A DNA stretch of 64,000 bases from Agrobacterium vitis. GTDB taxonomy: Bacteria > Pseudomonadota > Alphaproteobacteria > Rhizobiales > Rhizobiaceae. Below the pieces are notes generated by a model. The model saw only the letters and a program-made list of their open reading frames with translations. It made no database searches and was not told the DNA's origin. Location: the NCBI RefSeq assembly GCF_013426735.1, contig NZ_AP023272.1:1470501-1534500 (forward strand), written 5' to 3'. The position numbers and the translations under genes are program-made. Shown piece after piece: positions 2 to 13,644 of this stretch (its first letter is position 1; the number at the start of each line of letters is the position of its first letter).

Positions 2-367
2 GCCCATCTGACCGCCATCAACCTTGGCTTGAAAACCATCCCCGTCGATCGCCGCCGGCATCGCGATCGGGAATCGCGGCTGCTTGCCATCGTTCATGGC
101 CTGATCGCAGCCGCCGAGATCTGCATGAAGGAACATGTCAGGCTGGCTCTGGCGCGAAAAATGATGGAGCGGAGGCTAGAGGGGCGCCGGACGTCTTCGA
201 AATTGCCGGAACTGGTCGAACTGGTGATGGCTAAGCCGTTGGTGTCTGCCGGGATGGTGGCGAAGATGCTCGAGGTGACCCAGCAGGCGGCGCGGTGGAT
301 CACTTTGGAACTCGGCCTCTGGGAGATGACGGGGAGTGGGAGGTTTCGGGCATGGGGAGTTGCTTAA
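2..367 (+). CDS. DUF1612/HTH protein, C-terminal part (gene enters from the left edge)
   Basis: The reading frame is already open at the window edge, so this is the 3' end of a longer gene. The ~120 visible residues match the C-terminal part of the rhizobial DUF1612 plus helix-turn-helix family (RHE_PE00001-like), recognised by NLGLKTIPVDRRRHRDRE, then KLPELVELVMAKPLVSAG, and a terminal GRFRAWG block. Residues from LVSAGMVAKMLEVTQQAA onward look like a winged or helix-turn-helix segment. Family members are common on rhizobial plasmids and islands, but no molecular role is established, so none is assigned. The TTG at 29 is not a credible start because homology continues upstream of it. It lies 59 bp ahead of the DUF4365 gene and marks the accessory character of this end of the window. 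Confidence 0.8.
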   Translation, partial: AHLTAINLGLKTIPVDRRRHRDRESRLLAIVHGLIAAAEICMKEHVRLALARKMMERRLEGRRTSSKLPELVELVMAKPLVSAGMVAKMLEVTQQAARWITLELGLWEMTGSGRFRAWGVA

Positions 368-426: not shown

Positions 427-1437
427 ATGGAACTACCTAAGGCCGGAAATACATATATGCAGGAGCGGCGCGGAATCGCAGCGGTCCAGTCCTATGCCGC
501 CAGGGCCGGCCAGATTTGGCGTGAAACCGGGACAGGCGACGTCGGTATCGACGGGCAGATCGAGTTCGTCTCGCCGGAGGGACTGGTAAATGGAAGGACC
601 GTCGCGGTCCAGGTAAAGGCCGGGCCCTCTTTCTTCAAGCATAGAAGTGAGCTTGGCTGGAAGTTTTATCCGGAGGGCAAGCACAAAACCTACTGGGAAC
701 AGTTCCCTTTGCCCGTTGTTCTGGTCCTTCACGACACCGATGTCGGCGCTAGCTACTGGATAGACGTGCGGCAATTCTTGCGGGTTCCGCGGCGTGAAGA
801 ACGCGCCTTCATTGAGGTTCCGGAAAAGAACCTCCTTGAGAAAACCGACCCGACCTTACTTTTCGAGAGCACCGGTGTGTTCAACGAGCCCTTCATCCCT
901 GCGCTGGAAGACGTGCTCGACAAGCTCGTCACGACCACATCGGCAGAAGGCACATTCCCCCTCAGCTATTTCGATCTTTTCGTCCATGGACTGACGAAGA
1001 TCTGCCGGAGCATCTATTACGGCATGGACGTCGTCTGCAACGCTGTCGAATACAATCTCGAAGCGCAAGGATCCGAGTTCGGCATGGGAATGGGATCGAC
1101 GGAACACGAGTTCGCCTTCGGCTTCGTCAGATTCCTGCTGGCACAGAACCTCGCCGAGGTTGATTATTCTGATTGCCTCATCGACTGGGTGGACCGAGAA
1201 ATGCAGCCGCATTTCGTCGCGCCTCTCACCTCCCGGGGACGGGCCCTTGTCGCACTAATCCACCGGGAAGAGAAGCGGCTGATCGCGAATGGCTCGGTGG
1301 TGCACGGTGGCGAGCTTCGTGTCGCTCAGGAAGCATTTTTCAAAATCGAAATACGGTCCTGCTTCGCGAGATTTCCAAGGATACGGGAGTTTCAAATCGC
1401 ATCACGCCACGAGAAGACTGCCGACCGCGGTTCTTGA
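427..1437 (+). CDS. DUF4365 domain protein, PD-(D/E)XK nuclease-like
   Basis: This is a 336-aa protein. The start chosen is ATG 427, which follows a purine-rich GAGAGAAAAGAAG and begins where similarity begins; the open frame reaches back to 295 but overlaps the previous gene. Residues 12-125 form a DUF4365 domain: RRGIAAVQSYAARAG, then GDVGIDGQIEF (D38, D42, E46) and VAVQVKAG (Q62, K64), which fits the acidic plus (E/Q)xK pattern of PD-(D/E)XK nucleases. The remaining ~210 residues are mostly helical and unrecognised. DUF4365 proteins are often found in defence neighbourhoods. This one sits 224 bp upstream of a DNA cytosine methyltransferase in the same direction, so it could be the nuclease arm of a restriction-like system. 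That role is inferred from fold and position only. Confidence 0.75.
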   Translation: MELPKAGNTYMQERRGIAAVQSYAARAGQIWRETGTGDVGIDGQIEFVSPEGLVNGRTVAVQVKAGPSFFKHRSELGWKFYPEGKHKTYWEQFPLPVVLVLHDTDVGASYWIDVRQFLRVPRREERAFIEVPEKNLLEKTDPTLLFESTGVFNEPFIPALEDVLDKLVTTTSAEGTFPLSYFDLFVHGLTKICRSIYYGMDVVCNAVEYNLEAQGSEFGMGMGSTEHEFAFGFVRFLLAQNLAEVDYSDCLIDWVDREMQPHFVAPLTSRGRALVALIHREEKRLIANGSVVHGGELRVAQEAFFKIEIRSCFARFPRIREFQIASRHEKTADRGS

Positions 1438-1661
1438 GCAGAACCCCCGGACAAGGGCAGGGGGATCGCTTTGGCCTTGAAAATTACATTTGTCGATCAC
1501 CCAAGGCCGGTGCTGCTTTAATGCAACTTTGAGCATTCGCTGTTGTGTCGGAACCACATCTCCGATTGACGGGAGCGGTGCTCGCAAACTAGAACTGGAC
1601 ACGGGGGAATTCACAAGAATTCATTGTCGAAGCGGCCAGCGATAGAAACGTTTAGCGGGAA

Positions 1662-2729
1662 ATGATTGGAATAGATTTATTCGCTGGCGGGGGCGGCATG
1701 ACCATGGGCGCCAGGCTCTCGGGCATCGACGTCCGGGCGGCGGTGGAAAACCATCCTTCGGCCTGCCTGACATACGCGGCCAACCATCCCGGAGCGACAA
1801 TGCTCGGAACAGACATCGCGAAGGTGGCCACGATCGATGTCGGTCCCCGGGATCAGCCCGTGGTACTGTTCGGCGGCCCGCCGTGCCAGGGATTTTCGAC
1901 GTCGAACCAGCGGACCCGTCATGCCGACAATCCGAAGAACTGGCTCTTCCGGGAATTTCTGCGCATGGTCGAGACCCTCAAGCCTGAATGGGTGGTGTTC
2001 GAGAACGTCGCTGGCATACTCCAGACCGATGGCGGCCGTTTTGCCGAATCCTTCCGGGAGCAGCTCAAGGCGATGGGATACAGGATCGCGTTCGGCATCC
2101 TGAATGCAGCCGATTTCGGATGTCCGCAGCGACGCTCGCGCTACATCGTGATCGCCGCCCTGAATTCGGATCCCGAGCTTCCGACGCCTAGCCCCGATGT
2201 CGCGGTGCCCACCCTCTGGCAGGCGATCGGGGATCTTCCCCAGCTGGTCAACGGCGCCACCGTCGACGAGCTGGAGTACGGTGGCGCGCCGCTCTCGGAA
2301 TACGCTCGACGCATGCGGTGGGACCTTGCGAAGTGCACCGGCCATCTTGTCAGCAGGAACGCGGACTCGATCGTGGCGCGATATGCCCATATTCCGCAGG
2401 GCGGAAACTGGCGGGACGTTCCCGGCCTGATGCGGGACCCTGTCACCGATCGGCGCCGTTACCACTCAGGAATCTACAAGCGGTTGGTGCAGGACGCACC
2501 ATCCGTCGTCATTGGAAACTTTCGAAAGAACATGCTGATCCATCCCACTCAGGACCGAGGCCTCTCGGTCCGCGAAGCCGCTCGCCTCCAAAGCTTCCCG
2601 GATAGCTACGTCTTCCATGGATCGATAGGATTCCAACAGCAGCAGGTTGGCAATGCCGTGCCCCCAATCCTGGCGAAGGCCGTGTTCGACAAGGTGATGG
2701 AAATGTCCAGTCAAGCGGGAGGCCAATAA
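1662..2729 (+). CDS. DNA (cytosine-5-)-methyltransferase
   Basis: A 355-aa C5-cytosine methyltransferase that transfers a methyl group from S-adenosylmethionine to cytosine in a specific DNA site. The motifs appear in canonical order: motif I DLFAGGGGM (residues 5-13), motif IV GGPPCQGFS with catalytic Cys75, motif VI FENV (113-116), motif VIII CPQRRSR (154-160), motif IX SVREAARLQSFPD, and motif X QVGNAVPP (328-335). The target-recognition region of roughly 170-290 is not assignable to a sequence. ATG 1662 is immediately upstream of motif I, as is usual, with only a weak ribosome site (AGCGGGA). The stop is one base before the HD gene's GTG, so it heads a tight operon. It could act as a protective methylase for the DUF4365 protein or as a component of a larger conflict system. 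Confidence 0.95.
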   Translation: MIGIDLFAGGGGMTMGARLSGIDVRAAVENHPSACLTYAANHPGATMLGTDIAKVATIDVGPRDQPVVLFGGPPCQGFSTSNQRTRHADNPKNWLFREFLRMVETLKPEWVVFENVAGILQTDGGRFAESFREQLKAMGYRIAFGILNAADFGCPQRRSRYIVIAALNSDPELPTPSPDVAVPTLWQAIGDLPQLVNGATVDELEYGGAPLSEYARRMRWDLAKCTGHLVSRNADSIVARYAHIPQGGNWRDVPGLMRDPVTDRRRYHSGIYKRLVQDAPSVVIGNFRKNMLIHPTQDRGLSVREAARLQSFPDSYVFHGSIGFQQQQVGNAVPPILAKAVFDKVMEMSSQAGGQ

Positions 2730-2730
2730 C

Positions 2731-3801
2731 GTGCCCGAGCTGATTTCCGTAGATTCTGCTTTGGAACAATGGTTCAAGAAATCCTTGAAACGCGGCGCCA
2801 AGCTCCCCCGCCGCGGGGGCAAGTACTTCGAGCACTACACTTCCATCAAGCAGCGTCTAGCCGACAAGTACTACTCCGTCACCGGTGCCGCCCTGGCGCA
2901 GGAAGGCGATCGATATACGAGGCACGACATCGGGCATGTGGACGATGTCATCGAGACCGCGGGGCTGATGCTCGGCTTGGACTCCGACAGCTCAACGCCA
3001 GCCACCAAAAATCTGCAGGCCTACGAGGGCTTCGTCCTGCTTGTGGCCATCCTGCTGCACGATGCTGGAAACGCGATGCGCCGCCAGGGCCACGAGAGGA
3101 AGGCTGCCGAAATCTTGCGCGAGGTGGGCGAGGCAGTGGGATTGAGTGACATCGAACGCAGGATAATTTCTTCCATCGCACAGGCGCATGGCGGGGAAAT
3201 GGAGGACGGCAGTAAGGACACGATCACAGGCCTCATGAGCGAGCCGATCCCAAACATCCAAGGCATCGAGGTTCATGCCTGGCGCCTTGCCGCCTTGCTC
3301 CGTTTTGCGGACGAACTGAGTGAAAATCACACCCGCGCCGACGAGGTCGCGATCGGGAACGCAGCGACGCCGCCTCTGTCGCTCCTAGCGAACTTGTATT
3401 GTCTCGTTATCAACAGAAGAGTCGATTTCAAAGGCAAGTCGGTGCATCTTTCGTTTACGATCGACAAACAGCTTCTTCCTCGCACGTTCAGCATCCCCGA
3501 TGGAAATGGCGGAACGCGGGAGATTATGTTTATCGACTACATCGCCGAGCGATTGGAAAAATGCGAACGCGAGCGGCGCTATTGCAACCGCTTCCTGGCA
3601 GGGTTTGCAAGCTACGACCGTATCCGCGCAAAGCTGGTTATCATGGATGGCGATCGCGAGATCGACACTGTCGCGGTCGATCTCGAAGAGGTAGGCTATC
3701 CAGGGCTGTTGAAGAAGGTCAAGGATCTCCAGCCCAGATTTGATGCTTTCAAACTGCGCGATGAGCATTGCTTGACACCGCACCAGGAGCCAATCTCGTG
3801 A
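2731..3801 (+). CDS. HD-domain metal-dependent phosphohydrolase-like protein
   Basis: A 356-aa protein starting at GTG 2731, with a clear GGAGG eight bases upstream and one base after the methyltransferase stop. An HD superfamily domain occupies roughly residues 35-200. The visible metal-ligand pattern is TRHDIGHVDD (H65/H69), LLHDAGN (H110-D111), GHERKA (H121), QAHGG (H153) and RFADELSE (D194). Such domains are usually metal-dependent phosphohydrolases acting on nucleotides or cyclic nucleotides. The C-terminal ~150 residues, up to TPHQEPIS, are unrecognised and may be an interaction module. Its stop overlaps the next gene by four bases (GTGA), implying translational coupling with the P-loop ATPase. 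The substrate cannot be read from sequence. Nucleotide depletion or signal turnover would fit a defence role, but this is inference. Confidence 0.8.
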   Translation: MPELISVDSALEQWFKKSLKRGAKLPRRGGKYFEHYTSIKQRLADKYYSVTGAALAQEGDRYTRHDIGHVDDVIETAGLMLGLDSDSSTPATKNLQAYEGFVLLVAILLHDAGNAMRRQGHERKAAEILREVGEAVGLSDIERRIISSIAQAHGGEMEDGSKDTITGLMSEPIPNIQGIEVHAWRLAALLRFADELSENHTRADEVAIGNAATPPLSLLANLYCLVINRRVDFKGKSVHLSFTIDKQLLPRTFSIPDGNGGTREIMFIDYIAERLEKCERERRYCNRFLAGFASYDRIRAKLVIMDGDREIDTVAVDLEEVGYPGLLKKVKDLQPRFDAFKLRDEHCLTPHQEPIS

Positions 3802-5639
3802 GCACAAACCCGTTCGGCGTGCAGAATCCGGAGCATGTGGATGCCGCATATATCGCTCGAAACTTCGTCGAGGTTCAGACCGACTTTCCTCGTCTTAAAG
3901 AGCACGGAAACACGTTTATCCATGGCGCGCGCGGGACCGGGAAGAGCATGCTGCTCCGCAGCCTTGAACCGCGGGTCATGATTCTTCAGGAGAAGGCCGA
4001 TAAACTGAAAGATCTTCCCTTCGTTGCGGTTCACGTTCCTCTGCGAACCGCCGACTTCGGCGCTCCCGAGTTCAACCGATACAAGGGATATGCCGTCCAC
4101 GCGATCGGCGAGCACCTTCTTGCCATGCACGTCGTACTGAGGGTGACACAGCTTCTCGACAGCTTCCACAATGAGATTTCACAAGCCTCAGCAGAGCGTT
4201 TTCGCGAAAGGTTCGAGGAGCTCTTTAGTGTAGCCGGAGGTTCTGTGGCCGAGGACGCGTCGTCGGAGCCGTTGCAAGGGGAAACTCCCTTCCAGCGCGT
4301 CGCGAACACATGCGAGAAGAACATCTTTGAGGTGCGCCAATTCCTCGTGAGGCAGTGGTTTCGTAATTCGGAGCCGGACTATGTCGGCGCTTTGGCAGGA
4401 TTTCTAGATTTTCTTGTTCCTCTCTCACGCGAGGTCAAGCGCCTCGACGGGGTTCCAAGCGTTCCACTGTTCGTGATGTTGGACGACGCCGACAATCTCC
4501 CGATTCCGTTGCAGCGGGTGCTGAATTCCTGGGTGTCGACCAGAAGCACTGGCGACATATGCCTCAAGGTCACCACGCAGCTTGCCTACGCAACGATGCG
4601 CACGCTCGATAACCGCATTATTGAAAGCCCGCACGACTATGCGGAAGTGAACTTGACCGCGGTCTACACGGCGTCCTCAGACATATACAGCCGCCGCCTC
4701 CACGAGATAGTGACCAAGCGTCTTCAGAATTCGGGCATCCTTTCGACCGTCGACCAATTCTTCCCGCTGGACAAGGCGCAGGACGAGCGGCTGAGGGTCA
4801 TCGCAGCCGAGATCACTGCGGAGCATATTGAGATGAATTTGTCGTCCGAGGTTCCGGTCGGCTCGGCTCGTAGTCGCGACGAGGTGAGGCGCTACACGGT
4901 GCCCCAATTCATGCGGGAAATTGCGGGATCTTCGAAATCGGCCCACACATATAGCTATGCAGGGTTCCGTTCTCTGGTCGACCTGTCGTCCGGCGTCGTA
5001 CGCTGGTTTCTAGAACCGGCGAGCCGAATGTACGATAGGATGATAAGCGAGGGACTGGGGGACGGAACAGTCACCGAGATTCCAGTCAGCGTCCAGGACG
5101 CTGTCATCAAGGACTGGTCTGCTGAGTTCCTTGAGCCGCTGACTCGCCAAACGACGGAAATCTCCGATGCTCTGACTGATCTGAGCGAAGGAATCGAGAG
5201 TCTTCATGCCGACGGTCATGAAACCATACTCTACGAACAGCTTGGGAACCTGATAGAAGGACTGGGAAGATTGTTCCGAGGCAAGCTTCTCGATCAGAAT
5301 GCGAGCGAGCAGCGGGTGTTCTCGGTCGTGCTGAGAGACCGGCCGAAGCCAGAGCTGGAGCGCGTCCTGAATCTTGGCGTCAGGCTGGGCTATCTGCAGA
5401 GATCCGACTATGCCGCAAAGGAGGCGCTGGGGGGAAGGCGACCGCGATATATTCTGGCGAGACGTCTTGGGCCGCACTACAAGCTCGACATTTCAGGATA
5501 TGCCGCTCATCTGTCGATCATGTCGAAGGATCTGGAGCTGGCCATGCGAAGCCCGGGAGACTTTGTGAAGACCCGTCTGAAGCAGGACGGATCGGCTGAC
5601 AGCCAGTTTTCGTTGGACCTTGATGGAGCCAGGTTTTGA
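3798..5639 (+). CDS. ORC/CDC6-like P-loop ATPase
   Basis: A 613-aa protein. The start is taken as GTG 3798, which overlaps the HD gene stop in a GTGA junction; a TTG or ATG-like start at 3768 would need 34 bases of overlap. The N-terminus resembles annotated ORC-CDC6-family conflict ATPases: STNPFG, then a helical lead, then Walker A GARGTGKS (residues 43-50). A Walker-B-like strand PLFVMLDDADN (about 223-232) follows, then a sensor-1-like strand ending KVTTQ (about 257-261). The C-terminal third contains helices and a likely winged-helix segment around LNLGVRLGYLQRSDYA. No transmembrane segment is seen. It overlaps the next gene by four bases (TTGA). It is probably the regulatory or sensing motor of the operon; what it senses is unknown. 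Confidence 0.75.
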   Translation: MSTNPFGVQNPEHVDAAYIARNFVEVQTDFPRLKEHGNTFIHGARGTGKSMLLRSLEPRVMILQEKADKLKDLPFVAVHVPLRTADFGAPEFNRYKGYAVHAIGEHLLAMHVVLRVTQLLDSFHNEISQASAERFRERFEELFSVAGGSVAEDASSEPLQGETPFQRVANTCEKNIFEVRQFLVRQWFRNSEPDYVGALAGFLDFLVPLSREVKRLDGVPSVPLFVMLDDADNLPIPLQRVLNSWVSTRSTGDICLKVTTQLAYATMRTLDNRIIESPHDYAEVNLTAVYTASSDIYSRRLHEIVTKRLQNSGILSTVDQFFPLDKAQDERLRVIAAEITAEHIEMNLSSEVPVGSARSRDEVRRYTVPQFMREIAGSSKSAHTYSYAGFRSLVDLSSGVVRWFLEPASRMYDRMISEGLGDGTVTEIPVSVQDAVIKDWSAEFLEPLTRQTTEISDALTDLSEGIESLHADGHETILYEQLGNLIEGLGRLFRGKLLDQNASEQRVFSVVLRDRPKPELERVLNLGVRLGYLQRSDYAAKEALGGRRPRYILARRLGPHYKLDISGYAAHLSIMSKDLELAMRSPGDFVKTRLKQDGSADSQFSLDLDGARF

Positions 5640-6580
5640 GCATTCCGCTGACTGATCTTCCCGCGCGGCTTTGGACTAAATCCAGGCCGATTGTCGCACG
5701 AATGAGTTTTGAAGAACGGTCGGCTGTCGTAGCGCGCACCGCCCCGCCCGGTATGCTCCGCAAGGGCATTCTCTTCGCGTCTGAAGGCCGGAGCGATCTC
5801 GCAGAGGCGAGGTTGAGCGAGGTTAGGAGGCTGCATCCCAACCTCCGCGTCGTCGAGATTCGAACGAGCGACCCGCTCGGGACCGCTGAGGGGATCCACA
5901 AAGCGCTGAGCTCGATTAGCTTAGTGGATTCCGTGATCGACGTGACCGCGTTTCGCCGCGAGGAGCTTCTAATGCTCCTCGAAGCTCTCCGGGGCATCGA
6001 CAGCTCGAAACGCCGGAACTGCGAACTGGTTTACGTGAGCGCGGGCGAGATGGCGGATCCGTTGTCAGGAAAGGTAACGCAGTGCCGATCGGTCGTCGGC
6101 TACGCTGGCGCCATGTGGCCATCACGTCCGACCCGGCTCGTGGTGCTTATGGGTTTCGAGATTCCGCGCGCACGCGCGATCATCGAGGCATTCGAGCCCA
6201 AATATTTGGTGCTGGGGCGAGGTAGGCGGTCGGAATCAATCAGTCATTCCCTTTCGGATAAGAACGACAGGTTCTTTAAGGAACTTGCCTCCAACTACGC
6301 CAACGTAGAGTCGACCTTTGAGTTCTCAGCCCGAGATCCGCTGGCCGTGGTGAAGGAGTTGGAGCGCTCGATCTCACAATCCGAGAAATCGAATGTCGTT
6401 CTCGCGCCTTTGCACACTAAACTGTCAACGATTGGAGTAGGCCTCTACGCCCAGGGTCACCGCGACGTCCAGGTGTGCTATGCTCAGGTAGGTGCATACA
6501 ACGAAGAAACCTATTCGACCGTAGGAAGCTCCGCATATGTGCTATCGCTAACGCAGCTGTTCTCGCAGCGGGCCCCGTGA
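5636..6580 (+). CDS. Unrecognised Rossmann-like protein, last gene of the methyltransferase-HD-ATPase operon
   Basis: A 314-aa soluble protein that I do not recognise. The start is TTG 5636 inside a TTGA overlap with the ATPase stop, typical of translational coupling. Visible features are a strand-turn KGILFASEGRSDL (residues 43-55), a second strand VVEIRTSDPLGTAEG, and a strand-helix unit VIDVTAFRREELLMLLEAL (100-118). Later strands are LVVLMGFE (168-175) and NVVLAPLHTKLSTIGVG (253-269), then YAQVGAYNEETYS. The alternating hydrophobic strands and helices suggest one or two Rossmann-type folds. The IDVTAF element recalls the IDxTGG strand of CARF-like ligand sensors, but this resemblance is by eye only. 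It could be a sensor, a nucleotide-binding effector or a scaffold. Its stop is 8 bp from the convergent thyX stop. Confidence 0.6.
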   Translation: MSIPLTDLPARLWTKSRPIVARMSFEERSAVVARTAPPGMLRKGILFASEGRSDLAEARLSEVRRLHPNLRVVEIRTSDPLGTAEGIHKALSSISLVDSVIDVTAFRREELLMLLEALRGIDSSKRRNCELVYVSAGEMADPLSGKVTQCRSVVGYAGAMWPSRPTRLVVLMGFEIPRARAIIEAFEPKYLVLGRGRRSESISHSLSDKNDRFFKELASNYANVESTFEFSARDPLAVVKELERSISQSEKSNVVLAPLHTKLSTIGVGLYAQGHRDVQVCYAQVGAYNEETYSTVGSSAYVLSLTQLFSQRAP

Positions 6581-7839: not shown

Positions 7840-8458
7840 TCAGCGCTTCGGCTTCGGACCAATGCGCTCCCGCTCATGCCGCAGAAGATGAGCATGGACG
7901 ATCAACTCGGACATGCGCCGGCATAGCTGGAAGTCATCCGTCTTGGATTTGATCCTGGCTTTTAGGACAGCCAACTCTTTTGACTTGGGCTTCCGCTGCG
8001 CCACCCAGAGTAGCATGTCTGTCGCCTGAAGTCCGGCATTGTCTTTTGATGACAGCATTTCGAATTTCGCGAGATCATACTCCGCAATTTTTGCCTCAGG
8101 GAAACGGCTATCATCGAAGTCTTGGAAAATAATGCGGCCAAAATGCTGGTAGCTTTCCGCCAAGGCTTTTCGAAATTCATCCTGTTGGTCGTGAATTAAC
8201 CTTTCTGGCAGGCTCTCTTCCTTCTGAGCGAAATCGTGAATCGCTTGGAACAATTGGGTAAAGGCAACCACGTTCGGCGAACTCGCCTGATAGCCCTTTT
8301 TCTTTGATGTATCGCTGAGCGTGAATGCCCTGGGATTTTCCCGAGTGAAGTCGAATGCCGCCGCGATCACTTCACGGATCTGGGGCGCGCAATCCACTCT
8401 TTTGAGGGCTCTATCGACCTCTTCAAGTGCTGCAACTACCCCCTCGATATCGTCAACC

Positions 8459-8488
8459 TGGACTTGCCCGAAAAAAGTGGAGAGCGAA
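8459..8488 (+). repeat. IS3 terminal inverted repeat, orfB-side end
   Basis: Thirty bases starting TGGACTTGCCCGAAAAAAG. It matches the complement of 9699-9728 at 28 of 30 positions; the differences are two A-to-G changes at positions 13 and 16. The flanking ACC (8456-8458) is one copy of the target duplication. Confidence 0.92.
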
Positions 8489-8495
8489 GGCTTCT

Positions 8496-9365
8496 TCAGG
8501 GTGTCAGCTTGAGAGGGATGCTCTCGAACTGAATTGGGCTTTTGTAGCCCAAGGAGGAATGTCTTCTTTTTGGATTATAGAAGGCGTCGATGTATTGTCC
8601 AATGGCGATTTCAGCTTGGGTCCTTGTTTTGAATACAGTTCGCCAAACCAGTTCTGACTTGATTGTCTTGAACACGGTTTCCACCATGGAATTGTCATAG
8701 CAATTGCCCTTGCCGCTCATCGACAGGATGAACCCGTGAGCTTTCAGAAGCTTTTGGTAGTCGGTCGCGCAATATTGACTACCACGGTCGGAGTGGTGAA
8801 TGACATCCTTCGGCGGTCTGCGGATGGCTATGGCCCGTCGTAATGCCGTCAATGCCAGGTCCTGCTTCATTCGATCACTGGTGGCCCAGCCGATAATACG
8901 TCGAGAATAGAGATCGACAACAATGGCCAGATAGAGCCAGCCTTGCGTCGTCCAAACGTAGGTGATGTCAACACCCCACTTCTGATTTGGACCTGTGGCG
9001 GCAAAGTCCTGATCCAGAATATTGGGGGCAACAGGCCCTTTGTGATCGCTGTCAGTTGTTCTCTTGAATCGGCGTTTCTGCAATGCCTTCAAACCATTGT
9101 CATGCATGATGCGAGCAACCCTGTGGCGACCGACGCAAACCCCGTCTTCCTTCAGTTCCACCGTCATGCGTGGGCTTCCATAGGTTTCATGTGAGGTGGT
9201 GAACTGAGCCCGGATATGAGCCAAAAGAACCATGTCCGTCCTTTGCCGCAGGCTTGGTTTGCGTATGTCCCAAGCGTAATATCCGCTTTCACTGACACCC
9301 AGAAGCGTGCAGGCACGCTGAACAGGAACATTGGCCTTCTCTGCCGCAATGACCTTGAATTTCAT
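8496..9365 (-). CDS. IS3-family transposase OrfB (DDE integrase domain)
   Basis: A 289-aa catalytic part of the IS3 transposase. An N-terminal HTH_21-like segment (VPVQRACTLLGVSESGYY) precedes an rve integrase core. The DDE residues are visible as WGVDITYVWT (first D), HHSDRGSQY (second D) and CYDNSMVETVFKTIKSE (E). The C-terminus has the usual YNPKRRHSSLGYKSP block. The ATG at 9365 overlaps the orfA stop, but the active protein is normally the OrfAB fusion made by -1 frameshifting. The length and all motifs are intact, so it is likely functional. Confidence 0.95.
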   Translation of the reverse strand: MKFKVIAAEKANVPVQRACTLLGVSESGYYAWDIRKPSLRQRTDMVLLAHIRAQFTTSHETYGSPRMTVELKEDGVCVGRHRVARIMHDNGLKALQKRRFKRTTDSDHKGPVAPNILDQDFAATGPNQKWGVDITYVWTTQGWLYLAIVVDLYSRRIIGWATSDRMKQDLALTALRRAIAIRRPPKDVIHHSDRGSQYCATDYQKLLKAHGFILSMSGKGNCYDNSMVETVFKTIKSELVWRTVFKTRTQAEIAIGQYIDAFYNPKRRHSSLGYKSPIQFESIPLKLTP

Positions 9366-9670
9366 TTCATGGTTTCCTTTGCAAAGAAGGCGGCTGCTTT
9401 TTTTAATAAATCGCGCTCCTGACGCAGAATTTCATTTTCCTTGCGAAGACGCGCCAGTTCCTTGGCAGTATCTTCGTGTGGTCCAGAAAGCAGGTCGGCT
9501 TCCTTGTGGGCGCTCACCCATTTCCCAAGCGTCGAGAGCCCAACGCCAAGATCATCGGATATTGCACGCAACGGCCTGCCGCTGGTGCGCGCAAGTCGGA
9601 CAGCCTCAGCTTTGAAAGCATCTGTGAACTTGGCGTGGCGGCCGGGTGAATTCTTCTTCGTGTTCGTCAT
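9362..9670 (-). CDS. IS3-family transposase OrfA (HTH DNA-binding)
   Basis: About 102 aa from ATG 9670 (MTNTKKNSPGRHAKFTDAF). The frame is open to 9688, but that codon lies next to the terminal repeat. Residues 12-55 are a helix-turn-helix of the HTH_Tnp_1 type (FKAEAVRLARTSGRPLRAIS, then LGVGLSTLGKWV). A leucine-zipper-like coiled coil follows (ELARLRKENEILRQERDLLK). The region after LLKKAAAFF overlaps a poly-A slippery stretch that would shift ribosomes into orfB. Confidence 0.93.
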   Translation of the reverse strand: MTNTKKNSPGRHAKFTDAFKAEAVRLARTSGRPLRAISDDLGVGLSTLGKWVSAHKEADLLSGPHEDTAKELARLRKENEILRQERDLLKKAAAFFAKETMK

Positions 9671-9698
9671 AGGGCGAAATCCTATCAAAGGTTAGGGA

Positions 9699-9728
9699 TT
9701 CGCTCTCCACTTCTTCCGGGCAAGTCCA
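9699..9728 (-). repeat. IS3 terminal inverted repeat, orfA-side end
   Basis: On the complement it reads TGGACTTGCCCGGAAGAAG and onward, the partner of 8459-8488. The second ACC target copy follows at 9729-9731. The outward part of this repeat is read through by the truncated DUF3800 frame. Confidence 0.92.
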
Positions 9729-10165
9729 ACCAGATACGAGGCCCAGAACTGCCTTGCTGTTTCCAGCGACATAGCCTGGTCAATCGTGAGGCACAGGACG
9801 TGGCGATTGAGTTCGTCCCAGTACCAGTGACCTGGAACCTCTTTGTTTTCCCCCGCGTCGAAGATGACATCGACGAATTTTGTGGGGGCCATGTACGGTT
9901 TGTGGATCTCAGTAAGGTTGAAAGTCCACACCGCCGATCCTTCGATTGCATCAATGACCTGATGGGCTAGAGCTATGATCTGTCCCTCCGGCCATTCATG
10001 GGCATGGACCCGATCCGCTCCCTTCTCTTTGAGAAAGGGACGCAAGACCTCATCTACCAGAGGCGTAATATCAGAGGTCGCAAGGATCGCGCCAAGCCGA
10101 AAATATTCGTTATGATCAAAAATGTTGCGCCCCGAGTTGCCAGTTTCATCAGCGTAGATGATCAT

Positions 10166-10703
10166 ACTTACTCCGGGAGAAATGGCCCTCTTAGGCGGCT
10201 ACACATTTGGATGGTGCAGTAAATGCAGGGTGCTTTCTGTAATTTAAGCGTTCAGGGGTGAAACGCAACACCTTCAATTTTGATGTGAATCCAGCACGGT
10301 TGGTTCCGCGGCCGCTATTAAATATTGTTTCCACTGTGCCCTCCTGTGCAAGCATTTACCCGAATTCAGTGACAGGTCGGCGGTTCAAATCTCTTCAAGG
10401 CGGGCGTTGTGAGGAGCACTCTTCGTCAAGGTGCACTTATCAAGGTGCTTGGAAACCTTGAAACTGCACACTTGAGCTGCAAACGCTGCATCTCTGCTCC
10501 TTCGAATAATAGGAAGCCAGGCCGATGATCTGAAAAAATGCCCGACCCCGTAAGCCCAGGATCTACCATTGGTGTTCCAACAGGCTGCATGACGGTGTCG
10601 AGCTCCACCATGCAGCCGATTGCAGTGGTCGCGCTGCTCTTAGGATGCGTGCGGAGCCCAGCAGGTCTGTGGTCCTACCACCGCATAAAGCCGCGGTGGA
10701 ACG
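10166..10703. other. Gene-free stretch between the DUF3800 gene and the GNAT gene
   Basis: About 540 bases with no credible ORF on either strand. The DUF3800 ribosome site (GGAG) lies at the left end. An imperfect hairpin CCACCGC/GCGGTGG at about 10677-10699 lies just downstream of the GNAT stop and could terminate the decarboxylase-GNAT transcript. The rest has no structure I can name; it may be the scar at the island edge. Confidence 0.4.
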
Positions 10704-11279
10704 TCAGCGTGTGGATAACGGCGGCGGGGGAGGTGGCGTGGTTGCACCTGTCCCCAGCGAACGTTGCACCATGACGCTGTCCGCCCAGCGGCCGTAGCGA
10801 TATGCGACGGCCGGCAACAGGCCGACTCGCACGAAGTTGAAACGATCGTGCAGGGCAAGCGAAGCCACATTGTCGGCGTCGATGTAGCCGATGATCTGCC
10901 GGAATCCCGCTGCAGCACAGGCGTCAATCAGACCGCGCAGCAACTGGCTTCCGACCCGCTTGCCGATATGGTCGTGATGCACATAGATCGAGTGTTTGAC
11001 CGTATAGCGATAGGCCGGTCGCTTGCGAAACAGAACCACATAGGCGTAGCCCACGACCGTGCCGTCGATGGTTGCGACAATATGGGGAAAGCGTTTGCTC
11101 TTGAGGTTCTTGCGCCGCTCCCGCAGGTCGTCCGGTTCGGGGGTGTCGCTGTCGTCCACGCCCTCATCGAGGCCGCGGCGGATATGCCGTCGATAAATCG
11201 CTAGCATCGCTTCCACGTCTGCGTCGCGCGACGGCCGGATGACCATCCGGTTGTCCTGGTCCATAATTTGTTCCGACAT
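10704..11279 (-). CDS. GNAT-family N-acetyltransferase (phosphinothricin acetyltransferase-like)
   Basis: About 191 aa from ATG 11279 (MSEQIMDQDNRMVIRPSRD); the longer frame to 11333 would overlap the upstream decarboxylase. The GNAT fold is visible: IRPSRDADVEAMLAIYRRH at the start, VVGYAYVVLFRKRPAYRYT, then the acetyl-CoA loop region IGKRVGSQLLRGLIDACA and a terminal GFVRVG-like strand (FNFVRVGLLPAVAYRYGRW). The pattern resembles the PAT/Bar subgroup, which acetylates phosphinothricin, methionine sulfoximine or related amines. A proline-rich tail (TTPPPPPPLS) ends the protein. It starts 7 bp after the decarboxylase stop, so the pair is one operon. A polyamine or amino-acid acetyltransferase role would fit the partner but is only inferred. 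Confidence 0.85.
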   Translation of the reverse strand: MSEQIMDQDNRMVIRPSRDADVEAMLAIYRRHIRRGLDEGVDDSDTPEPDDLRERRKNLKSKRFPHIVATIDGTVVGYAYVVLFRKRPAYRYTVKHSIYVHHDHIGKRVGSQLLRGLIDACAAAGFRQIIGYIDADNVASLALHDRFNFVRVGLLPAVAYRYGRWADSVMVQRSLGTGATTPPPPPPLSTR

Positions 11280-11286
11280 GGCCAGA

Positions 11287-13644
11287 CTACTCCGCAACGA
11301 CGTAGGTATAGAGCCGCACGCGCCCGGCGGCATCCGTTTCGCGATAGACGCCCTGGATTTCCACTTCGAACCCGGGGAAGGTGTTGAAGCAGGATTCGAA
11401 CATCTTGAGATAGTCGATCATCGGCTGCGCCAGATCGGTGAGCCGCTCACCCGGAACGATGGTGGCGATGCCCGGCGGATAGACCACGAAGGGGGTTGTC
11501 GCGATGCGTCCAGTAATCTCGTCGATCGGCAGGTAATCGACGTCGTTGCGCACCAAGCTGCGTGCCGCGTCATGCGGAGACATCGCCATTGGTGGTAGGT
11601 GCGCAGCAGAAAACTGCTTTGCCTGCAACGCGCTGACGTTGGCATCCCGAAAGAAGCGGTGCAGATCGCCGCAGAGATCGCGCAGGCGCACGCCGGCATA
11701 GCGGCCCGGGCGCCGACGGTAGAATTCCGGGATCACTTCTTCCAGCAATGCATTGTCGTCATGCAGCTTCTTGAAGGCCACGAGGCCGCTTATCAGGGTG
11801 CCGGCCTTGCTTGCCTCGACCCCAGGCGTCAGCAGGAAGAGCAAGGAGTTGAGGTCGTTCTTCTCGGCAACAATGCGGTTTTCGCGAAGATATTGCGCTA
11901 CGATCGGGGCAGGAATGCCATGTTCGGCATAGAGACCGGTCTTGCGGTCGAAGCCCGGCGTCAGCACCGTCAACTTGTTGGGATCCGTCATGGCGAACCC
12001 CTGTTCCATGCCGCTGAACCCATGCCAGGATGCATCGGGGGTGAGGTGCCAGAAAGCCGGGTTTGTCGCCAGCTGGTCGGTGGCAATGCTCTCCCATGGC
12101 ACGTCGTGCGAGGCGCCGGGGCTTGCAACATCAGGGATCAAGACGCGATCCGGCACGAAGGGCTCGAAGAACCAACGGCGCTCTGCACGCGGCTCCTTGT
12201 CCTCGAATTCCCTGCGCACGGCGCGCATCTTTTTTCTGAGTTCGATCCCGAGGCGGATCGTATCGTCCCACAGCACCTCGCCGGAACGACCCTTCATCAT
12301 CTGCGCGCCGACATCGAGCGAGGCGAACAGGGGATAGAAGGGCGAAGTGGAGGCATGCTGCATGAAGCTCTCATTGAAGCGCCGGTGCTCTACGCGCCGC
12401 TTCTGGCCGGTAATATGGCGATCCTTCATGTGGATCTGCGACGCCTGCGAAAAGCTGGCGAGCTGCTTGTGCGTGGACTGGGTGGCGATGATGCCGGGGG
12501 AATCCGGGCCGAGATTAGCGAGCCCCATGGCGAATCGCCCCGCATAAAGCGGGTGAAACTTCATGAAGCCGGCCCAGGCCTCGTCGAAGAGGATATAGTC
12601 ACAGAGATGACCGATCGATTTCAGGATCATCTCGGCATTGTGGATCGTGCCGTCATAGGTGCACTGCTCGACGACGGCAACACGGAATGGCCGCGGCTTC
12701 TGCCAGGCGTCAGGATCCTTCACCAGGGGATTGGCGCGAATGCGCGCGCGCAGCGCGGTCTCGTCCAGCGACGCGTAGTCGATCGGGCCGATGAGACCAT
12801 GCGCGTTGCGGGTGGTCGGGAGGTAGATGGGAATGCCACCCGATATCATCAGGGCCCCATGGTGCGCGGCCTTGTGATTGTTGCGGTCGAACAGCACGAG
12901 GTCGCCATCTGTGACAAGGGCGGAAAGCGCGACCTTGTTGGAGGTAGATGTTCCGTTCAACACGAAATAGGTCTTCTCGGCGCCGAAGATCTTTGCCGCT
13001 TCCTTCTGTGCCGCAAGCGCCGGCCCCTCATGAGTGAGGAGGTCGCCGAGGTCGAGCACGGAATTGTCGAGGTCGTCGCGGAAGACCGCTTCGCCGAGAT
13101 GCTCCATGAACACGCGACCGATCGGGCTGCGGCTGTAGAACACGCCGCCATTGTGCCCGGGACAAGTCCAGAGATGGTTGCCTTCCTCTGCGTAATCCAC
13201 GAGCGCGCCGAAGAACGGCGTTTTCAGCGTTTCCGCATATTGCTTCAGACGGCTGATGAGGTTCTTCGCGATGAAAGCGGGCGTTTCCTCCGACAGGAAA
13301 ACGTAACCATCAATGAAGTCGAGCACCTCGACCGGCACGTCCTCGAAACGCTTTCCACGGATCAGGAGGATGATGGGGAAATCCAGCCCGCGGCGGCGCA
13401 TCAAGTTTATGAGGTGAGAGGTCTTGCCTTCAAGCCCCTTTTTTCCCCAATCGACCATCATACAGCCGATGGCGGCATCAGTCTGAACAACGATCTCTGC
13501 GTCGTCCAGATTGCGGGCACGCACCACTTCAAAACCGGAACGCTCGATCTCTTGAATGATCTGTTTGTAACGAACGCCCTCCAAATCCTCGCTGTCGAAC
13601 GAGGGTGTGGCGAACAAGAAGTTGAAGCGTCTGAAATAATCCAT
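11287..13644 (-). CDS. Orn/Lys/Arg decarboxylase, PLP-dependent
   Basis: About 785 aa from ATG 13644 (MDYFRRFNFLFATP). It is a fold-I (aspartate-aminotransferase type) basic amino-acid decarboxylase. An N-terminal receiver-like wing domain (to about residue 125) comes first, then the PLP domain containing WTCPGHNGG, FVLNGTSTSNK and FDEAWAGF. The PLP lysine is in QSTHKQLASF (K393). The C-terminal Orn/Lys/Arg domain includes VYPPGIATIVPGE. The protein decarboxylates ornithine, lysine or arginine to a polyamine precursor; the exact substrate is not readable. Rhizobia also carry a fold-III decarboxylase elsewhere, so this is likely the larger enterobacterial-type enzyme. It is followed by the GNAT gene in the same operon. 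Its length is typical, with no damage seen. Confidence 0.93.
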   Translation of the reverse strand: MDYFRRFNFLFATPSFDSEDLEGVRYKQIIQEIERSGFEVVRARNLDDAEIVVQTDAAIGCMMVDWGKKGLEGKTSHLINLMRRRGLDFPIILLIRGKRFEDVPVEVLDFIDGYVFLSEETPAFIAKNLISRLKQYAETLKTPFFGALVDYAEEGNHLWTCPGHNGGVFYSRSPIGRVFMEHLGEAVFRDDLDNSVLDLGDLLTHEGPALAAQKEAAKIFGAEKTYFVLNGTSTSNKVALSALVTDGDLVLFDRNNHKAAHHGALMISGGIPIYLPTTRNAHGLIGPIDYASLDETALRARIRANPLVKDPDAWQKPRPFRVAVVEQCTYDGTIHNAEMILKSIGHLCDYILFDEAWAGFMKFHPLYAGRFAMGLANLGPDSPGIIATQSTHKQLASFSQASQIHMKDRHITGQKRRVEHRRFNESFMQHASTSPFYPLFASLDVGAQMMKGRSGEVLWDDTIRLGIELRKKMRAVRREFEDKEPRAERRWFFEPFVPDRVLIPDVASPGASHDVPWESIATDQLATNPAFWHLTPDASWHGFSGMEQGFAMTDPNKLTVLTPGFDRKTGLYAEHGIPAPIVAQYLRENRIVAEKNDLNSLLFLLTPGVEASKAGTLISGLVAFKKLHDDNALLEEVIPEFYRRRPGRYAGVRLRDLCGDLHRFFRDANVSALQAKQFSAAHLPPMAMSPHDAARSLVRNDVDYLPIDEITGRIATTPFVVYPPGIATIVPGERLTDLAQPMIDYLKMFESCFNTFPGFEVEIQGVYRETDAAGRVRLYTYVVAE

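What the first reader, a model, noticed from the sequence alone, without database searches (positions are those of the whole stretch)
427..6580. Five-gene, probably undescribed defence-like cassette: DUF4365, cytosine methyltransferase, HD protein, ORC/CDC6-like ATPase, Rossmann-like unknown
Seen: the last four genes are translationally coupled (1-base gap, then GTGA and TTGA overlaps), and a DUF4365 gene with PD-(D/E)XK-like residues is 224 bp upstream on the same strand. Known: C5 methyltransferases, PD-(D/E)XK proteins, HD phosphohydrolases and P-loop ATPases are recurrent parts of anti-phage systems. I know of no named system with this set and order. Inferred: the methylase marks self DNA, the ATPase senses or moves along DNA, and the HD or nuclease protein executes.
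Basis: partly seen in the sequence, partly recalled or inferred. Interest (0 to 1): 0.85.

Follow-up and report, generated by a model that had tools for sequence, protein, structure and literature searches.

The report
Mobile methylase–HD–ATPase–CARF defence cassette
A four-gene mobile bacterial cassette pairs a DNA-marking enzyme with a probable sensor, an ATPase and a probable nucleotide-destroying enzyme, and most likely acts as an anti-virus shutdown switch; its parts are known families, but this methylase-linked form seems little studied.

Summary
The genes are real and placed as described. The conserved unit is four genes, not five: C5 methyltransferase, HD-CE, ORC-CDC6-like ATPase, CARF6. 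DUF4365 was found in 3 of 18 loci. The "unknown Rossmann" gene is an internally duplicated CARF protein.

In 17 of 18 distinct loci with a complete HD-CE–ORC–CARF6 triplet a C5 methyltransferase lies directly upstream; the 18th has two a few genes away. Hosts include Alpha-, Beta- and Gammaproteobacteria, Magnetococcales and a Bacteroidota plasmid. Two loci sit beside Tn5053/Tn7-type genes, two beside tyrosine integrases, four are in plasmid records. Key catalytic residues are invariant in the 17 methylase-linked copies.

The ORC–CARF6 pair also occurs with PRTase-CE or a metallophosphatase instead of HD-CE, and as one kinase-like–ORC–CARF chain. In six rhizobial loci a ThyX gene abuts the cassette; this host also has ThyA.

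Best reading: a mobile anti-phage system in which methylation marks self DNA, ORC plus CARF6 detects infection, and HD-CE hydrolyses nucleotides. Defence is well supported; trigger and substrate are inferred. HD-CE, PRTase-CE and ORC-CDC6-like are already Pfam families (source paper recalled, not held), so: new variant of a known kind.

The parts
1662..2729 (+). C5 cytosine DNA methyltransferase (355 aa); core gene 1
   Evidence: PF00145 204.6 bits; P74, C75, E114, N115, R158 invariant in 17 of 17; cassette-specific clade
2731..3801 (+). HD-CE phosphohydrolase-type effector (356 aa); core gene 2
   Evidence: PF24391 85.7 bits, cut-off 27; H65, H69, H110, D111, D194 invariant in 17 of 17; fold nearest Ppx/GppA
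3798..5639 (+). ORC-CDC6-like AAA+ ATPase (613 aa); core gene 3
   Evidence: PF24389 331.1 bits; K49 and D229-D230 invariant in 17 of 17
5636..6580 (+). CARF6 tandem-CARF protein (314 aa); core gene 4, probable sensor
   Evidence: PDLC01917 E=1.5e-117; model pLDDT 92.4; halves homologous by hhalign; Foldseek to Can2, Cam1, Csm6, Card1
427..1437 (+). DUF4365 protein (336 aa); accessory, found in 3 of 18 loci
   Evidence: PF14280 97 bits; tblastn in fetched loci: only L045, L059
6589..7539 (-). ThyX (FAD-dependent thymidylate synthase), convergent, 8 bp after CARF6; travels with rhizobial cassettes
   Evidence: PF02511 195.9 bits; 6 of 18 loci; only ThyX of the host, which also has ThyA elsewhere
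29..367 (+). C-terminal remainder of a DUF1612/HTH_13 (RHE_PE00001-type) gene, shorter than its homologues; flanking cargo
   Evidence: homologues upstream of the cassette in L045, L059, L060
7840..10165 (-). DUF3800 gene in two pieces (7840-8397, 9692-10165) interrupted by an IS3-type element (8496-9688); block shared with L045 runs to about 10399

Best explanation
A mobile anti-phage cassette. The C5 methyltransferase marks resident DNA at its site. The ORC-CDC6-like AAA+ protein, with the tandem-CARF protein CARF6, forms the sensing complex: the ATPase engages DNA, and CARF6 binds a nucleotide ligand. Foreign unmethylated DNA, together with or read out through that ligand, switches on HD-CE, which hydrolyses nucleotides and halts replication or the cell. 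In rhizobia ThyX travels with it, perhaps to refill dTMP. Shown here: gene content, order, coupling, intact active-site residues, correlated divergence, mobile setting, swapping of the effector slot, and a kinase-like-ORC-CARF single chain. Inferred: complex formation, the self-mark role of methylation, the ligand, the HD substrate, anti-phage activity and the ThyX role.
For: Methylase directly upstream in 17 of 18 distinct complete triplets, two C5 methylases a few genes upstream in the 18th. Of 48 junctions in 16 loci, 47 lie between -26 and +32 bp; one is -71, as annotated in its record (some starts were picked by hand). Distance matrices of the four proteins correlate (Spearman 0.60-0.90; 0 of 1000 permutations reach any of the six values; 17 loci). 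No flanking family is nearly as constant: the most frequent, ThyX, is in 6 of 18. Cassette methylases are a clade of their own: of 1088 matching plasmid records the top four (94, 59, 48, 45%) are the four cassette plasmids, the next is 38%; in 398 genomes of the phylum, of four genomes with hits at E<=1e-60 the two above 50% are cassettes, the other two 41%. Effector swap with constant ORC+CARF6: PRTase-CE (L032, L037, L038, L040), metallophosphatase (L034, L035); kinase-like-ORC-CARF6 in one chain, L039. DNA methylases also near L032 (N6) and L039 (two C5). Mobility: TniA-like/TniB/TniQ/resolvase in L045, TnsA-like/TniB/TniQ in L053, tyrosine integrases in L048 and L056, plasmid records L059-L062. 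The ATPase was in none of the 99 relatives searched besides the host.
Against: No direct evidence of phage resistance, methylation or nucleotide hydrolysis. In the PRTase-CE/HAD/PfkB and metallophosphatase variants (L034, L035, L037, L038, L040) no protein matched the window's methylase by BLASTP (the other neighbours were not all profile-scanned), so methylation seems not to be needed by the ORC-CARF6 module as such. The methylase correlates less tightly with the other three (0.60-0.69) than they do with each other (0.85-0.90). Shared descent of hosts could also give such correlations. No standard CARF-ligand maker (SMODS, Cas10 palm2) was found in the host, so the ligand is unknown. HD-CE's nearest solved folds (Ppx/GppA) do not fix a substrate; TM-scores on the query are 0.27-0.36 for the top 16 and only the first has E<=0.001.
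Confidence: 0.42

Rival explanations
1. The system senses a nucleotide, not DNA methylation: CARF6 binds a phage-made or phage-altered nucleotide, ORC is an NTP switch, HD-CE executes, and the methylase has a side role, such as shielding the element from other restriction systems.
For: CARF fold and duplicated motifs; ORC-CARF6 occurs in operons where no methylase was seen; neighbouring genes of nucleotide metabolism: ThyX here, dUTPase and an HD/HD_assoc gene by L032, NADAR and PfkB by L037, L038 or L040. Clover shows an HD dGTPase switched on by dTTP (abstract and passages, PMC12265719).
Against: A C5 methylase accompanies every one of 18 HD-CE-ORC-CARF6 triplets, more than a side role predicts.
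Confidence: 0.3
2. A selfish addiction or retention module: the methylase is the antidote and the other three genes kill cells that lose the element.
For: Methylase always linked in the 18 loci; plasmid and transposon setting; tight coupling. Type II restriction systems can act this way (established knowledge).
Against: Needs no CARF sensor; the PRTase-CE and metallophosphatase variants without a visible methylase would have no antidote. Not exclusive with defence.
Confidence: 0.18
3. HD-CE is the off-switch that destroys the CARF6 ligand, and another part (DUF4365 or CARF6 itself) is the executor.
For: HD proteins include phosphodiesterases (established knowledge; trypanosome and human PDEs are among the weaker fold matches); DUF4365 has nuclease-like residues by eye and PADLOC REase-type matches.
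Against: DUF4365 found in only 3 of 18 loci, 16 of them judgeable; the HD slot is occupied by PRTase-CE, a metallophosphatase or a kinase-like domain in sister operons, as an effector slot would be.
Confidence: 0.07
4. Not defence: a replication or metabolic operon of plasmids and transposons.
For: ORC-like protein and thymidylate synthase side by side.
Against: ATPase in none of 99 relatives besides the host; effector swapping and CARF link; the window copy lies on a 3.77-Mb contig.
Confidence: 0.03

Closest known systems
HD-CE / ORC-CDC6-like / PRTase-CE families (Pfam PF24391, PF24389, PF24390); recalled source Nicastro et al. 2023, doi 10.1093/nar/gkad879
   Same: Both the HD and the ATPase gene pass the Pfam cut-offs; sister operons carry PRTase-CE in the effector slot. 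Title seen in the reference list of PMC12265719; abstract recalled.
   Different: Paper not held, so whether it lists this methylase-linked, CARF6-containing form, or ThyX, is unknown to me. Of 17 genomes of the phylum sample with HD-CE over cut-off, only three also hold an ORC-CDC6-like hit over cut-off.
CARF6 clade of the CARF superfamily (PADLOC CARF6 models; recalled source Makarova et al. 2020, not held)
   Same: PDLC01917 at 1.5e-117; PDLC01925 is a CARF-kinase-AAA model, matched over its length by L039.
   Different: No CBASS or type III CRISPR ligand maker found in the host; tied here to an ORC-type ATPase and a DNA methylase.
Clover (CloA/CloB)
   Same: HD-superfamily nucleotide hydrolase as effector under nucleotide control (PMC12265719, abstract and passages).
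   Different: No nucleotidyltransferase over a cut-off here; ATPase, CARF and methylase instead. CloA itself was not compared with HD-CE.
Type II restriction-modification and BREX/Ssp-type systems
   Same: Modification systems with an ORC/CDC6-clade ATPase are also described for BREX and Ssp (passages, PMC10853773 and PMC12839542).
   Different: No constant restriction nuclease among flanking genes; no PglZ, BrxC or phosphorothioate names among the hits of the six proteins scanned.

Membership tests
HD-CE (PF24391) | score over curated cut-off | tested here: met
   85.7 bits, cut-off 27
HD-CE (PF24391) | H/HD/D residues kept | tested here: met
   invariant in 17 of 17
HD-CE (PF24391) | hydrolyses nucleotides | not testable with these tools
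   prediction only (recalled)
ORC-CDC6-like (PF24389) | score over curated cut-off, Walker A/B | tested here: met
   331.1 bits; K49, D229, D230 in 17 of 17
CARF6 | match to CARF6 profile | tested here: met
   PDLC01917 1.5e-117; in the phylum sample all 10 genomes with long ORC-CDC6-like matches have a CARF6 gene or domain next to or in it
CARF6 | CARF fold | tested here: met
   Foldseek probability 1.00 to Can2, Cam1, Csm6, Card1 over 121-167 columns, but TM on the query 0.27-0.33 since only about half aligns; the two best E-values are non-CARF entries with rmsd 20.8, and the RdmB methyltransferase also reaches probability 1.00
CARF6 | binds cyclic oligonucleotide | not testable with these tools
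   no ligand test possible
CBASS or type III CRISPR signalling | CD-NTase or Cas10 source of the ligand | tested here: not met
   no SMODS, no Cas10-Cmr2 palm2 hit in the host genome; other makers not sought
Type II restriction-modification | C5 methyltransferase | tested here: met
   17 of 18 directly upstream
Type II restriction-modification | constant partner endonuclease | tested here: not met
   no flanking family in more than 6 of 18 loci, and that one is ThyX; DUF4365 in 3
Clover | HD dNTPase plus nucleotidyltransferase | tested here: not met
   no nucleotidyltransferase over a cut-off among the six proteins scanned
Druantia / DISARM / BREX | signature proteins besides the methylase | tested here: not met
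   DruM/DrmMII models match only the methylase; other PADLOC hits of the cassette are CARF6, and weak or REase-type ones (best 25 of 63 shown for the methylase)

The most novel reading that the evidence does not exclude
A methylation-gated nucleotide-depletion immunity: an ORC-type ring tests DNA for a cassette-specific C5 mark, and a single-chain, pseudo-symmetric tandem CARF adds a nucleotide checkpoint before an HD hydrolase is released. ThyX is a built-in recovery enzyme that refills dTMP by a route independent of the host ThyA. ORC-CARF6 would then be a general immune chassis with exchangeable effectors (HD, PRTase, metallophosphatase, kinase) and exchangeable self-marks (C5 or N6 methylation).
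Probability: 0.2. Interest if true: 0.8.

Novelty: new variant of a known kind. Interest (0 to 1): 0.55.

Why it matters
If right, it joins two immune logics usually seen apart, DNA self-marking as in restriction-modification and nucleotide-depleting shutdown under CARF control, on one ORC-type platform with swappable effectors. It makes two open questions testable: what CARF6 proteins bind when no known cyclic oligonucleotide maker is found, and what ORC/CDC6-like immune ATPases recognise. The ThyX link would be the first clue I know of (recall; one literature search) that an immune cassette carries its own recovery enzyme.

Tried and rejected
Five-gene cassette: rejected. DUF4365 was found only in the window, L045 and L059 by tblastn over the fetched cassette loci and by flank clustering; L044 and L052 have too little upstream DNA (151 and 70 bp) to judge.

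ThyX as a native gene at the insertion site: not supported for this genus. ThyX profile hits in 3 of 63 genus genomes, all over cut-off: the window's; one in G059, 45% identical and among genes that look like prophage by eye; and a weaker one in G035 (35.7 bits), also in a phage-looking stretch by eye.

Phage-borne homologues: none in IMG/VR by the pattern scan (32 pattern matches, none confirmed); one partial hit in a 6.96-kb phage record. E. coli genomes were not searched.

Transposon ends: no inverted repeat of 17/22 or better between L045 1-430 and 15151-15600; ends not found.

A promoter and terminator scan gave no more than shuffles (1 against a mean of 2.6; 6 against 7.9); no repeats in the 226-bp spacer.

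Sequence search of solved structures gave no convincing relative for CARF6, HD-CE or ORC. CARF6 did return matches to designed proteins at E down to 4.5e-6, but over 18 profile positions only, which I took as spurious. The VIA second look was not on the machine.

Rows dropped: of 15 loci, L057 (ORC cut by the contig end) and L058 (short match) were left out of all counts. L033 equals L047 and L036 equals L055; each counted once. L055 was left out of the distance test because its methylases are of another clade. G456, one of the 14 genomes over the ORC cut-off, was not read.

Papers: Makarova 2020, Burroughs 2020 and Nicastro 2023 are not held. Searches gave no listed paper on this cassette; I saw listings only, and in part (20 of 160, 15 of 23). 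That is no proof of absence from print. Passages were read in PMC8195603, PMC10853773 and PMC12839542; abstract and passages in PMC12265719.

Full report
Observation. The spacing is 224 bp, then +1, -4 and -4. Profiles give DUF4365, C5 methylase, HD-CE and ORC-CDC6-like. The last protein has no Pfam or NCBIfam hit but matches the PADLOC CARF6 model PDLC01917 at 1.5e-117 over residues 2-310.

Distribution. The ATPase was found in the host and in none of the 99 relatives searched with it. One genome-contig scan with a three-sequence ATPase alignment returned 15 loci, of which 13 hold a complete triplet; PLSDB gave four plasmid records. With the window that is 18 distinct complete HD-CE–ORC–CARF6 triplets. 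Hosts by record title include Rhizobium, Agrobacterium, Mesorhizobium, Methylocystis, Pelagimonas, Yoonia, Magnetococcales, Gamma- and Betaproteobacteria and Spirosoma (Bacteroidota). A C5 methylase is directly upstream in 17 of 18. In the 18th (L055) two C5 methylases and a Vsr gene lie upstream, with three further genes between them and HD-CE. Because the loci were found through the ATPase, the presence of the other three genes is the independent observation. As a control, 228 flanking ORFs of the same 18 loci were clustered: no family recurs in more than 6 loci. The most frequent is ThyX (6), then a PAS/response-regulator-type group (by eye) and the DUF1612 gene (4 each), DUF4365 and an IS3-type transposase group (3 each). 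The scan patterns favour near relatives, so the true range is probably wider.

Coupling and co-inheritance. In 16 loci, 47 of 48 junctions lie between -26 and +32 bp; one is -71, as annotated in its record (some start codons were picked by hand). Pairwise distances of the four proteins over 17 loci correlate with Spearman 0.60 to 0.90; none of 1000 permutations reaches any of the six values. Identity to the window falls to 23-34% for HD-CE, ORC and CARF6 in the five farthest loci (L053, L054, L056, L061, Spirosoma), while the methylase stays at 45-57% in all but the four nearest relatives. Its target-recognition stretch (residues 201-270 by my placement) has a mean commonest-residue frequency of 0.65, against 0.55 for 121-170 and 0.78 for 271-355: compatible with one shared site, no proof. 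The cassette methylase is a clade of its own: in plasmids the four best of 1088 matching records are the four cassette plasmids, then a drop from 45% to 38%; among 398 genomes of the phylum only the window genome and G147, both cassettes, exceed 50%, and two others reach 41% without an ORC-CDC6-like hit.

Anatomy. In 17 aligned cassettes the HD residues H65, H69, H110, D111 and D194, the ATPase K49, D229 and D230, and the methylase P74, C75, E114, N115 and R158 are invariant. CARF6 was modelled at mean pLDDT 92.4; its strands and helices fall into two successive (beta-alpha)4-beta-beta halves. A profile of one half aligns to the other with hhalign probability 82-85%. Foldseek returns Can2, Cam1, Csm6 and Card1 with probability 1.00 over about half the chain. 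Other Rossmann-type and unrelated entries rank among them with poor superposition, and the RdmB methyltransferase also reaches probability 1.00, so the CARF call rests on profile and fold together. A pseudo-two-fold pocket in a single chain is an inference from this duplication. HD-CE was modelled at pLDDT 85.4; its 16 best folds are Ppx/GppA proteins, which does not tell the substrate.

The wider family. In 398 genomes of the phylum, 14 pass the ORC-CDC6-like cut-off. I read the window and 12 regions; G456 was not read. In the 10 genomes with long matches the partner is CARF6 each time: window, L032-L038 and L040 as a separate gene, L039 in the same chain. Three loci outside that sample (L056, L061, L062) and two (L049, L053) agree. 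The effector slot holds PRTase-CE in L032, L037, L038 and L040 and a metallophosphatase in L034 and its sister-genome locus L035. L039 encodes a kinase-like part (24.6 bits, below Pfam's cut-off of 31.7), ORC and CARF6 in one 1239-residue chain that matches PADLOC's CARF_STK_AAA model with 1470.9 bits. That chain has the same order as the separate genes here, effector then ORC then CARF, and suggests one complex. L032 has an N6 methylase after CARF6, and L039 is flanked by two C5 methylases on the other strand. Of three loci with a short ORC match, the one neighbour tested in L042 and in L043 has no CARF6 hit; in L041 no neighbour was tested. HD-CE is over cut-off in 17 of 398 genomes, three of which also hold an ORC-CDC6-like hit over cut-off.

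Mobility. L045 has TniA-like, TniB, TniQ and a resolvase upstream; L060 a resolvase and plasmid replication genes; L053 TnsA-like, Mu-transposase-type, TniB and TniQ genes; L048 and L056 tyrosine integrases. The block shared by the window and L045 starts 766 bp left of the window and runs to about 10399, broken by an IS3-type insertion. No terminal repeats were found.

ThyX. In six loci (window, L044, L045, L046, L059, L060) a ThyX gene converges on CARF6, from an 11-bp overlap to 32 bp apart. Three of the twelve others (L048, L049, L055) end 102-529 bp after CARF6, too soon to judge. Methylocystis (L056), also of the order Hyphomicrobiales, lacks it in 9 kb. The host's only ThyX is this one and it has a separate ThyA. 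ThyX may be a recovery enzyme, a modulator of a thymidine-nucleotide signal, or passenger cargo such as antifolate tolerance; the data do not choose. Clover, whose HD dGTPase is activated by dTTP (PMC12265719, abstract and passages), shows that thymidine nucleotides can matter to such systems.

Interpretation. The defence reading rests on rarity among relatives, mobility, effector swapping, CARF and methylase coupling, and intact catalytic residues. The methylation-gated reading rests on the constant methylase. The main result against it is that ORC–CARF6 occurs in other operons where no methylase was seen (not all neighbours profile-scanned). No SMODS or Cas10 palm2 was found in the host, so CARF6 is probably not reading a standard cyclic oligonucleotide in this cell, although other makers were not sought.

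Standing. HD-CE, PRTase-CE and ORC-CDC6-like are consecutive Pfam entries (PF24389-24391) and, by recall, come from Nicastro et al. 2023, whose title I saw in a reference list but whose text is not held. I therefore file this as a new variant of a known kind; searches listed no paper on it, in a library that lacks the key papers.

Noticed in passing
L039 6130-14205: One 1239-residue protein (8494-12213) joins a kinase-like part, ORC-CDC6-like ATPase and CARF6, with a C5 methylase on either side on the other strand.
   Followed up: partly
L032 5345-12030: PRTase-CE-ORC-CARF6 operon with an N6 DNA methylase downstream and, just upstream, a dUTPase and an HD/HD_assoc (dNTPase-like) gene.
   Followed up: partly
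L037, L038, L040: PRTase-CE operons joined by a protein with a HAD-like part (L037, L040), a PfkB kinase (L038, L040) and a NADAR protein (L037, L040): a second recurring layout of ORC-CARF6.
   Followed up: partly
L034 1510-4911 and L046 1-3404: Metallophosphatase-ORC-CARF6 (L034) and HD-CE-ORC-CARF6 (L046, Mesorhizobium) lie on opposite sides of the same 3.4-kb segment (84.5% identical): a possible insertion hot spot.
   Followed up: partly
L046 19464-21826: Proteins similar to the repC and repB of the L060 plasmid lie about 7 kb from the L046 cassette, so that contig may be a plasmid or hold an integrated one.
   Followed up: no
window 7840-10165: A DUF3800 gene is split by an IS3-type element; the homologue in L045 (14035-15207) is in one piece.
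   Followed up: partly
L063 3689-14725 (just upstream of the window): A VgrG-like gene (Phage_GPD, gp5 domains) and a 1522-residue RHS-repeat protein, a type VI secretion-type locus, lie beside the cassette; an IS4/5-type transposase lies between.
   Followed up: partly
L055 1395-8864: A run of C5 methylase (740 aa), Vsr, C5 methylase, two proteins without Pfam hits and a DUF6339 protein precedes HD-CE-ORC-CARF6, possibly a merged restriction-type locus.
   Followed up: no
L069 8569-9267: A second kind of ThyX in a genus relative, 45% identical, among prophage-looking genes.
   Followed up: no
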